Assembly: GCF_004342485.1 (NCBI RefSeq)
Contig: NZ_SMBU01000008.1
Span: 62,001 to 126,000 of the forward strand
Direction of reading: 5' to 3'
DNA from: Roseateles saccharophilus
GTDB lineage: Bacteria > Pseudomonadota > Gammaproteobacteria > Burkholderiales > Burkholderiaceae_C
DNA length: 64,000 nt
In this document: positions 26,574-29,229 of the stretch, piece after piece
Layout: every line of letters starts with the position of its first letter
How positions within the stretch are numbered: the stretch's first letter is position 1
Position numbers and translations under genes: made by a program
Notes under the pieces: model-generated
What the model was told of the DNA's origin: nothing
What the model saw: the letters and a program-made list of their open reading frames with translations, nothing else
Databases searched by the model: none

Positions 26574-28157
<1,584 letters not shown>

Positions 28158-28179
28158 TCGCACACCCTCTGGCAGGGTT

Positions 28180-28207
28180 TTGACGAATACTGTATAAAAC
28201 TACAGCA
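28180..28207 (+). promoter_or_regulatory. LexA-type SOS operator with overlapping promoter
   Basis: CTGTATAAAACTACAG (28190-28205) has the invariant CTGT-N8-ACAG of LexA boxes with an AT-rich centre. A -35-like TTGACG lies at 28180-28185, and a weak -10 (CAGCAT, 28203-28208) falls 17 bases later, so the operator fills the spacer as at recA. LexA binding should block this promoter. Confidence 0.8.
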
Positions 28208-28225
28208 TTCACTGAGGAGCCTGCC

Positions 28226-28306
28226 ATGTACGGTCAATACCGCCAGAACTACGTCCCCGGTCGCCCCCTGCCGATGTGGGTCCAGAAGCTGCTGAGCTGG
28301 CTCTGA
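28226..28306 (+). CDS. 26-residue peptide under predicted LexA control
   Basis: The frame begins MYGQYRQNYVPGRPLP and ends with a hydrophobic-amphipathic tail MWVQKLLSWL. It has a strong ribosome site, GAGGAG at 28214-28219, six bases before the ATG, and lies 20 bases after the LexA box. The N-terminal half is polar and Tyr-rich; a Pro-Gly-Arg-Pro break precedes the tail, which could lie along a membrane. I do not recognise the peptide. SOS-induced small membrane peptides such as TisB are known elsewhere, but no sequence similarity is claimed. It stands alone between argG and the convergent ligase gene. Confidence 0.6.
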   Translation: MYGQYRQNYVPGRPLPMWVQKLLSWL

Positions 28307-28328
28307 GAACGAGCCCTGGGAGCCGCCG

Positions 28329-29155
28329 TCAGAACTCATCAGCCACACGGACGAAGCTGGCAAAACGCGGTTTTCCGCCCGGCGTCAGCTCACGGTAGCG
28401 GTAGGTCACCGTCGAGCCCATCGGCGGCGGGTTGCGGCGTTGGGCGTCGGTGAAACCCGTGCCCAGCTTGAAGCGCAGGCCCTCGGGCGTCTGCAGCACC
28501 AGGGCACCAAGCTGGCCGGCCAGCCGCCCCTTGCCGGGCATATGGCCGACGACGACGGCCTCGGCGTCCGCCAAGGGCTTGAGCTTGAGCAGCAGGTCGC
28601 TGCGCCCCGCCGCCAGCGGTGCGTCGGCGCGACGCAGCATCAGGCCCTCGCCGCCCGCGTCGACCACCTGCTTCAGCAGCGCGAGCAGTTCGGCATTCGA
28701 GCCGCAGCGCTGCTGCACCACGGGCAGCAGGACACCGCCAGCCAGGGTCTCGAGCTTGGCGGCCCGCTGGGAGAAATCGCCGCCGCTCGCCGGCAGTTCG
28801 AACACACGGTAGCTGACGCGATGCCATTCCGCGTCCACCGGCTCGGCGCGCCGCACGGTGGCCGACAGCGTGTCGAAGCTGCGCCGCGCGATCCACAGCT
28901 CGCCGTCCAGCGCCAGCCTGGGCAGCGAGGTCAGGAACCAGGCAGGCGCGGCGACCACGCGGCCGCTGCGAAAGCGCAGCGTCGCCCCGTCCCACAGCGC
29001 CCGCACGCCGTCGAGCTTCTCGCTGACGAGATAGGGCCTCGGGTCGATGCCGCAGGCCCGTTGCGAGCCAGCAGCGGCTCCAGCGCCAGCACCGGCCCGC
29101 TCAGGCTGCCCAGCCAGGCCAGCAGCACCCGCCGGCGCAGTGTCTTCACGCTCAT
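28329..29155 (-). pseudogene. Exported ATP-dependent DNA ligase (LigE-like), frameshifted near its N-terminus
   Basis: The catalytic region is complete: adenylation motif SEKLDGVRALWDG (Lys nucleophile), LDGELWIARR, EGLMLRR, LLKLKPLADAEAVVVG and a C-terminal OB-fold tail to FVRVADEF. In this frame the N-terminus is low-complexity. In a second frame, from an ATG at 29155, a good signal peptide is read (MSVKTLRRRVLLAWLGSL, then GPVLALEPLLARNG). The two frames meet near 29050-29062, and 827 bases between start and stop means one base is missing. Family members have a signal peptide joined directly to G-I-D-P-R, so this is a single-base deletion or a sequencing error. Intact enzymes of this type are periplasmic nick-sealing ligases, proposed to act during DNA uptake. 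Confidence 0.8.
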
Positions 29156-29229
29156 CGCCACCCTCGCTCATGGACCGAAGGCGGCCATCATCGGGCCGGC
29201 CTATCTACCGTGCGTGGCAGGATTCACCA

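What the first reader, a model, noticed from the sequence alone, without database searches (positions are those of the whole stretch)
28180..28306. LexA-controlled 26-residue peptide: possible undescribed SOS micro-protein
Seen: a perfect CTGT-N8-ACAG operator inside a TTGACG promoter spacer, then GAGGAG six bases before a 26-codon ORF with a polar Tyr-rich head, a PGRPLP break and a WVQKLLSWL tail. Known: some SOS genes encode tiny membrane peptides that slow growth. Inference: this is an SOS-induced peptide, by itself or as a leader, in a region otherwise without a target gene for the operator.
Basis: partly seen in the sequence, partly recalled or inferred. Interest (0 to 1): 0.78.

Follow-up and report, generated by a model that had tools for sequence, protein, structure and literature searches.

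The report
SOS-controlled 26-residue micro-protein family
A tiny, unlabelled gene that bacteria related to Pelomonas keep behind the switch of their DNA-damage alarm encodes a 26-residue peptide with a conserved sticky tail, so it is probably an undescribed part of how these bacteria respond to damaged DNA.

Summary
The finding holds and is larger than reported. The 26-codon ORF behind a perfect CTGT-N8-ACAG operator looks like a real gene: all 20 genomes held for its genus (Pelomonas/Roseateles) carry it, same length, perfect operator, purifying selection in this frame (pN/pS 0.38; other frames 0.68-1.91). Protein profiles blind to upstream DNA matched 47 of 250 family genomes (29 of 141 genera). 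Of 51 tail-and-stop hits outside the genus, 43 have a LexA box (at most one mismatch) within 110 nt; so do 12 of 13 hits kept out of the profiles, and 0 of 13 false hits. Outside the family nothing convincing appeared. In the home genome the same operator precedes recA, imuA and an SRAP gene. Neighbours vary (argG in 14 of 20 genus loci, 0 of 64 others), so it is neither an argG part nor a leader. In 11 loci it adjoins, in either order, an equally undescribed 66-77-residue protein. The peptide is cationic, with a strictly C-terminal amphipathic Trp tail and no transmembrane span, unlike TisB, DinQ or SidA. Best guess: a damage-induced peptide acting at the membrane surface or on a partner to restrain growth. 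Induction, translation and function are unproven.

The parts
28169..28174 (+). probable -35 element (CTGGCA), 18 nt before the TATAAA in the operator
   Evidence: among 20 genus alleles a -10 starting at operator base 4 with a -35 16-18 nt upstream gives the clear peak (8.5 of 12 matches on average; next best offset 5.85). Inferred, not measured.
28190..28205 (.). LexA operator CTGTATAAAACTACAG, containing the probable -10 TATAAA (28193-28198)
   Evidence: perfect in 20 of 20 genus alleles, bases 1-7, 9 and 13-16 invariant; same operator class before recA, imuA and SRAP in the same genome; one-mismatch version before lexA.
28214..28219 (+). ribosome-binding site GAGGAG
   Evidence: a Shine-Dalgarno-like tetramer lies in the last 16 nt before the ATG in 19 of 20 genus alleles.
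28226..28306 (+). 26-codon gene plus stop, MYGQYRQNYVPGRPLPMWVQKLLSWL: head with YRQNYxP, hinge RPLP, amphipathic C-terminal tail WVQKLLSWL
26841..28157 (+). argG (argininosuccinate synthase), upstream neighbour, not part of the unit
   Evidence: neighbour in 14 of 20 genus loci and 0 of 64 others.
28329..29171 (-). ATP-dependent DNA ligase (PRK09125 type), convergent neighbour, not part of the unit
   Evidence: found in 13 of 20 genus loci and 0 of 64 others.

Best explanation
This is a free-standing SOS gene. LexA sits on an operator that overlaps the promoter (in Pelomonas over the -10) and keeps it off; after DNA damage LexA is cleaved and a very short mRNA with a good ribosome-binding site gives a 26-residue peptide. 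The peptide has a head (Y/L-R-Q-x-Y-x-P), a proline hinge and a strictly C-terminal amphipathic Trp-rich tail (commonly P-x-W-L-R/Q-R/K-I/L/V-W/L-x-W-L/F-stop). Most likely the tail docks on the inner face of the membrane or in a partner's groove and the head engages a target, restraining growth or division during repair. Shown by sequence: operator, frame, selection, family, co-conservation, link to a second small SOS gene (that this is an SOS-controlled micro-gene I hold at about 0.95). Inferred: LexA binding, induction, translation, membrane or partner docking, growth restraint.
For: Frame and operator kept in 20 of 20 genus genomes. pS 0.411, pN 0.158, ratio 0.38 in this frame; the other five frames give 0.68-1.91; 185 of 190 pairs have pS > pN. 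Pairwise identity: CDS 0.79, last 20 nt before the ATG 0.42, 60 nt after the stop 0.31. Of all 64 listed profile hits outside the genus, 51 end in tail and stop: 43 have a box (at most one mismatch) within 110 nt, 37 perfect; the 13 without tail have 0. Of 13 hits kept out of every profile, 12 have a box, 6 perfect. Background in genus loci about 0.0136 per 110 nt for at most one mismatch, 0 perfect in 194,002 positions; by the window shuffles about 0.03. P at -11 in 84 of 84, W at -2 in 83, W at -9 in 77; net charge at least +2 in 99%; maximal 15-residue hydropathy median 0.01. No PF03846 (SulA) match in the genome (the control rings in E. coli).
Against: No expression, binding or phenotype data. 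Membrane docking rests on composition only: on average 11% of shuffles of the last ten residues reach the observed helical moment, and for the window's own peptide it is modest (0.46). The host's FtsA also ends in a Trp-containing tail (LLGRVKDWFMGNF), but that is a likeness of kind, not of sequence. Only about a fifth of family genomes were hit (47 of 250; a lower bound, since only 24-33 candidates per listed genome were scored). Nothing convincing outside the family. Three of six copies that lie behind ORF1 have no box with at most one mismatch shortly before ORF1. One relative (G178) has ACG where the start codon is expected. ImuA of this genome has a weak, below-cut-off SulA-model match.
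Confidence: 0.5

Rival explanations
1. The peptide is a partner-binding accessory of an SOS repair or replication protein: head and tail form a short docking motif, and the linked 66-77-residue protein (ORF1) is its partner or works in the same step.
For: ORF1 adjoins the peptide on the same strand in 11 loci of 9 genomes, in both orders: ORF1 first with overlapping stop and start codons in G124 (3 loci), G162, G290 and G428 or a short gap in G201; peptide first in G254, G158, G225 and G104. Of 12 ORF1 places without the peptide nearby, 9 have their own box with at most one mismatch, 3 of them perfect (one of the other 3, L190, was misread at a contig edge). One such ORF1 stands before a uvrD-like helicase (L180, by eye). 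11 of 15 ORF1 genomes were also peptide hits, against 47 of 250 overall.
Against: Most genomes give no ORF1 hit (15 of 200 do; the window's own genome does not). No fold or family is known for ORF1. The co-occurrence figure ignores kinship and assumes that the two draws nest.
Confidence: 0.3
2. A membrane-depolarising SOS toxin like TisB: induced peptides assemble in the inner membrane and drop the proton gradient.
For: LexA operator, 26-30 residues, amphipathic tail with Trp; TisB (29 residues) is described as amphipathic and depolarises the membrane after DNA damage (PMC11449926, passages).
Against: No stretch long and hydrophobic enough to span the membrane; the amphipathic part is about 10 residues; a leader of about 20 nt and unconserved flanks leave no sign of an antisense antitoxin.
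Confidence: 0.13
3. The ORF is only a leader, or the operator serves another gene or an RNA.
For: argG transcription could run through; the operator could in principle act on a neighbour.
Against: The downstream gene is convergent; neighbours change while operator and ORF stay together; selection is on the protein, the stop position is kept, downstream DNA is unconserved; no Rfam match in the window at gathering scores.
Confidence: 0.05
4. Chance: an operator-like palindrome before a random small ORF.
For: Short ORFs and CTGT-N8-ACAG both occur by chance.
Against: All conservation results above.
Confidence: 0.01

Closest known systems
TisB of E. coli (SOS type I toxin)
   Same: SOS-induced, 29 residues, amphipathic (abstract starts in the listing; passages of PMC11449926)
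   Different: No membrane-spanning helix, no sign of an antisense RNA antitoxin, very short leader; no sequence comparison with TisB was run
SidA of Caulobacter (SOS division inhibitor)
   Same: SOS-induced and 29 residues (passages of PMC4211646); the window's genome too has no SulA match
   Different: SidA is an inner-membrane protein that binds FtsW; this peptide has no transmembrane stretch and its target is unknown
DinQ of E. coli
   Same: SOS-regulated toxic peptide (abstract start of PMC3567139 in search listings)
   Different: DinQ is a single-transmembrane peptide with antisense RNAs
C-terminal membrane-targeting helices (FtsA, MinD)
   Same: Short tail with basic residues and Trp/Phe at the very C-terminus; the host FtsA ends LLGRVKDWFMGNF (that such tails bind the membrane is recalled)
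   Different: No sequence homology shown; here the tail is over a third of the whole protein
hypA/hypB, hypothetical LexA targets predicted in beta-Proteobacteria
   Same: Predicted LexA-regulated hypothetical genes of this class (PMC3323433, passages)
   Different: Their sequences were not seen; hypA could be ORF1 or something else, and is not shown to be this peptide

Membership tests
LexA (SOS) regulon | LexA operator of the clade's type over the promoter | tested here: met
   Perfect CTGT-N8-ACAG in 20 of 20 genus alleles; same type before recA, imuA and SRAP in the same genome. The promoter itself is predicted.
LexA (SOS) regulon | induction by DNA damage that depends on RecA/LexA | not testable with these tools
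   No expression data held.
protein-coding micro-gene | conserved frame with purifying selection | tested here: met
type I toxin (TisB/DinQ kind) | membrane-spanning hydrophobic helix | tested here: not met
   Maximal 15-residue Kyte-Doolittle mean: median 0.01, maximum 0.67 in 84 sequences.
type I toxin (TisB/DinQ kind) | antisense RNA antitoxin | tested here: inconclusive
   No Rfam match in the window; flanks not conserved; no transcript data.
SidA-like division inhibitor | inner-membrane protein that binds FtsW/FtsN | tested here: inconclusive
   No transmembrane stretch; binding not testable.
SulA | SulA domain (PF03846) | tested here: not met
   No Pfam match of the window peptide at E <= 1; no PF03846 match in the genome at E <= 0.001.
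known phage, defence or curated protein family | profile match | tested here: not met
   Window peptide: none at E <= 1 in Pfam, NCBIfam, PHROGs or PADLOC; profile A3: no PDB sequence at E <= 1. One relative has a sub-threshold Pfam match (E 0.061).

The most novel reading that the evidence does not exclude
A new class of SOS effector in a large branch of Burkholderiales, in which the one genome tested lacks SulA: a surface-acting, non-transmembrane micro-protein that provides the missing damage checkpoint, in places coupled to a second undescribed SOS protein (ORF1), the two acting as one movable module.
Probability: 0.28. Interest if true: 0.88.

Novelty: new variant of a known kind. Interest (0 to 1): 0.76.

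Why it matters
Small SOS proteins decide whether a damaged cell stops, waits or dies, but the known ones met here (TisB, DinQ, SidA) are membrane proteins. A family carried in at least 29 genera of one bacterial family, whose tested members pass no cut-off of the curated libraries searched, adds an unstudied output of the SOS response in a group where the one genome tested has no SulA, and names a second unknown SOS protein to study with it. The promoter also seems to have been rebuilt between genera (operator over the -10 in Pelomonas, recA-like spacing elsewhere) while LexA control was kept.

Tried and rejected
Rejected: TTGACG as the -35; leader or argG trailer; phage or plasmid origin of the peptide (no phage record matched; only weak plasmid matches inside annotated genes; ORF1: none in plasmids, and none confirmed in viral contigs); transmembrane toxin by hydropathy; known families. 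Hits such as RPLPIWLARRMRW recur in many genomes without tail, stop or box and were set aside as unrelated. Outside the family, all 17 candidates were checked and none has the tail with stop; 3 of them have a one-mismatch box within 150 nt, one of these within 110.

Rows set apart before counts: 13 of 64 profile hits without tail and stop. The tail rule was written, so that split is partly post hoc; the 13 hold-outs came afterwards, though several share a genus with a profile row, and one of them (G178) lacks a start codon. Three of the 51 tail hits (G269, G399, G446) carry sequences that were in profile A2. Hits above E 0.01 were not examined. Of the 23 perfect operator sites in the genome, besides the window's own, the genes behind 6 were read, 14 were seen only in short context, and those on C57 and C67 were not fetched.

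Full report
What is there. In the window, TTGACG (28180-28185), CTGTATAAAACTACAG (28190-28205), GAGGAG (28214-28219) and a 26-codon ORF with stop (28226-28306) lie between argG (26841-28157, plus) and an ATP-dependent DNA ligase gene running the other way (28329-29171, minus). The operator is the only match with up to one mismatch in 64 kb. In the whole genome the pattern has 23 perfect sites against 6 for its reversed control.

Is the operator a LexA operator here? The genome has one lexA over the curated cut-off, on the same contig (C8:28358-28996), with a one-mismatch box CTGGATGAAAATACAG upstream. Of the six other perfect sites whose downstream genes I read, one precedes recA, one imuA and one an SRAP gene. 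One precedes the first part of a PA0069-type radical SAM gene; splB, a radical-SAM type photolyase gene (kinship recalled), has been predicted as a LexA target in beta-Proteobacteria (PMC3323433, passages). One starts 118 nt before mraZ. For the sixth, at L038, I identified no gene.

Is the ORF a gene? All 19 other genomes held for the genus have it; record titles of 18 named loci are mostly Pelomonas, Roseateles or unnamed Burkholderiales. All 20 alleles are 26 codons plus stop, with a perfect operator that starts 36-40 nt before the ATG; one allele (L017/L034) has a second box at -58. In this frame pS is 0.411 and pN 0.158 (ratio 0.38); the other five frames give 0.68, 0.92, 1.09, 1.78 and 1.91. 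185 of 190 pairs have pS above pN; third codon positions vary most (235 of 20,000 permutations reach the observed excess). The CDS is 0.79 identical on average, the last 20 nt before the ATG 0.42 and the 60 nt after the stop 0.31, so conservation falls off at the stop codon.

How far does it reach? A profile of the genus (A1) found three full-length relatives in other genera; L076 and L085 have perfect boxes and L075 a one-mismatch box. A second profile (A2, two of 13 rows from outside the genus) matched 66 of 399 family genomes at E <= 0.01. I checked all 64 listed places outside the genus. 51 end in the Trp tail and stop; of these 37 have a perfect box, and 43 a box with at most one mismatch, within 110 nt of the start. 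The 13 without the tail have none. Of the remaining eight, two have a perfect box at -164 and -176 and six are second genes behind ORF1; three of these six have a box with at most one mismatch shortly before ORF1, three do not. A third profile (A3, 42 rows) matched 47 of 250 family genomes, 29 of 141 genera, at E <= 0.001. Thirteen of these hits were in no profile; 12 have a box with at most one mismatch within 110 nt, 6 of them perfect, and the thirteenth lies behind ORF1, whose own box has one mismatch. Background in 194,002 positions of the 18 named genus loci, peptide regions masked: 0 perfect and 24 with at most one mismatch, about 0.0136 per 110 nt; the window shuffles correspond to about 0.03. 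In the order outside the family none of the 17 candidates has the tail with stop. In some searches only a limited number of first-look candidates per genome was scored, so prevalences are lower bounds.

Promoter. In Pelomonas, scanning positions relative to the operator gives a clear peak for a -10 starting at operator base 4 (TATAAA) with a -35 16-18 nt upstream (8.5 of 12 matches; next best 5.85). In 43 loci of other genera the peak is weaker (6.56; next best 5.35) and lies at operator base 12, with a TTG 12 nt before the box in 17 of 43; that arrangement resembles the E. coli recA promoter (recalled). So the operator seems to have been kept while the promoter was rebuilt. Part of this signal is forced by the operator itself. 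A plain consensus scan reported no promoter and no terminator in 28000-28500.

Neighbours. argG lies directly upstream in 14 of 20 genus loci and the ligase gene is found in 13 of 20; in 64 loci of other genera neither is found (flanks 0.5-1.5 kb, shorter at some contig ends). Operator and ORF therefore persist as one unit in different places. The convergent downstream gene excludes a simple leader role in the window.

A companion. In seven loci the peptide follows a 66-77-residue ORF (ORF1; core EGVLRYVWEGRFGSMLIEVVDGVAYVNGxRVE): overlapping stop and start codons in G124 (three loci), G162, G290 and G428, a short gap in G201. In four (G254, G158, G225, G104) the peptide comes first. ORF1 was found at 21 places in 15 of 200 family genomes. 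Nine of the 21 adjoin the peptide; of the other 12, nine have their own box with at most one mismatch within 110 nt (3 perfect), often CTGGATGAA-like as at lexA. Two hits at contig edges were misread by my script (L170 and L190); L170 is the same place as L151, read correctly. ORF1 stands before a uvrD-like helicase (L180), before an mraZ-like gene, with the peptide (L172), and behind relaxase-like (L178, L182, L183) or mobilisation-like (L181) genes (these names were read by eye). 11 of the 15 ORF1 genomes are peptide hits (hypergeometric 2.7e-6, ignoring kinship and assuming that the two draws nest). ORF1 sequences match nothing at E <= 1 in Pfam, NCBIfam, PHROGs or PADLOC, and the profile no PDB sequence (further ORF1 sequences at E <= 0.01).

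What it does. Across 84 sequences, counted from the C-terminus, P-11 is in 84, W-2 in 83 and W-9 in 77; L, F or C ends all 84; net charge is at least +2 in 99%; the most hydrophobic 15-residue stretch has a median of 0.01. That speaks against a membrane-spanning peptide and fits a short amphipathic C-terminal helix behind a proline, with a polar RQ-x-Y-x-P head. The host's FtsA ends LLGRVKDWFMGNF, a tail of similar kind, which suggests, without homology, docking on the membrane face. The genome has no SulA-domain match, so an SOS division or growth inhibitor would fill a vacant role. This step is inference; a partner-binding accessory of repair, perhaps with ORF1, is nearly as likely.

Known or new. 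TisB, DinQ and SidA share SOS control and size but are membrane proteins. No paper listed describes this family in its title or in the start of its abstract; these listings were partly cut, hold open-licence papers only, and I read passages of four papers (PMC3323433, PMC4211646, PMC11449926, PMC9578287). hypA and hypB of PMC3323433 could not be compared. I rate it a new variant of a known kind: the kind is SOS-induced micro-proteins; the variant is a non-transmembrane, Trp-tailed family with an optional companion.

Noticed in passing
G000:C30, locus L049 (reverse strand, about 1516-1809): The reading frame of the LexA-boxed PA0069-type radical SAM gene of the home genome ends right after its NPYRGCEH motif, followed by unrelated-looking DNA with an unidentified open frame, as if interrupted by an insertion (no Rfam match).
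   Followed up: partly
L039 (G000:C5:166039-166054): A perfect CTGT-N8-ACAG site starts 118 nt before mraZ, usually the head of the division gene cluster (recalled); may be chance.
   Followed up: no
L172, L174-L183, L186: ORF1, an undescribed 66-77-residue protein, mostly with its own LexA box, also lies behind relaxase- or mobilisation-like genes that suggest mobile elements.
   Followed up: partly
L111, L112, L124, L144, L145, L147, L148, L150, L218: Many relatives have two operators 18-19 nt apart before the peptide, one or both perfect, suggesting tandem LexA binding over the promoter.
   Followed up: no
L213 (G178): The peptide copy has ACG where relatives have the ATG start; either a rare start or a decaying copy.
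   Followed up: no
L165 (G518, another family of the order): An ORF reads RQHYTPKPAPIPRW followed by a hydrophobic stretch instead of the Trp tail, with no LexA box found; a possible distant cousin or chance.
   Followed up: no
G000:C25:85082, C57:135, C67:46: The same CTGTGATGGCGGACAG sequence recurs at three places (one on the opposite strand), at C25 within a locally repeated stretch; probably part of a repeat rather than an SOS promoter.
   Followed up: no
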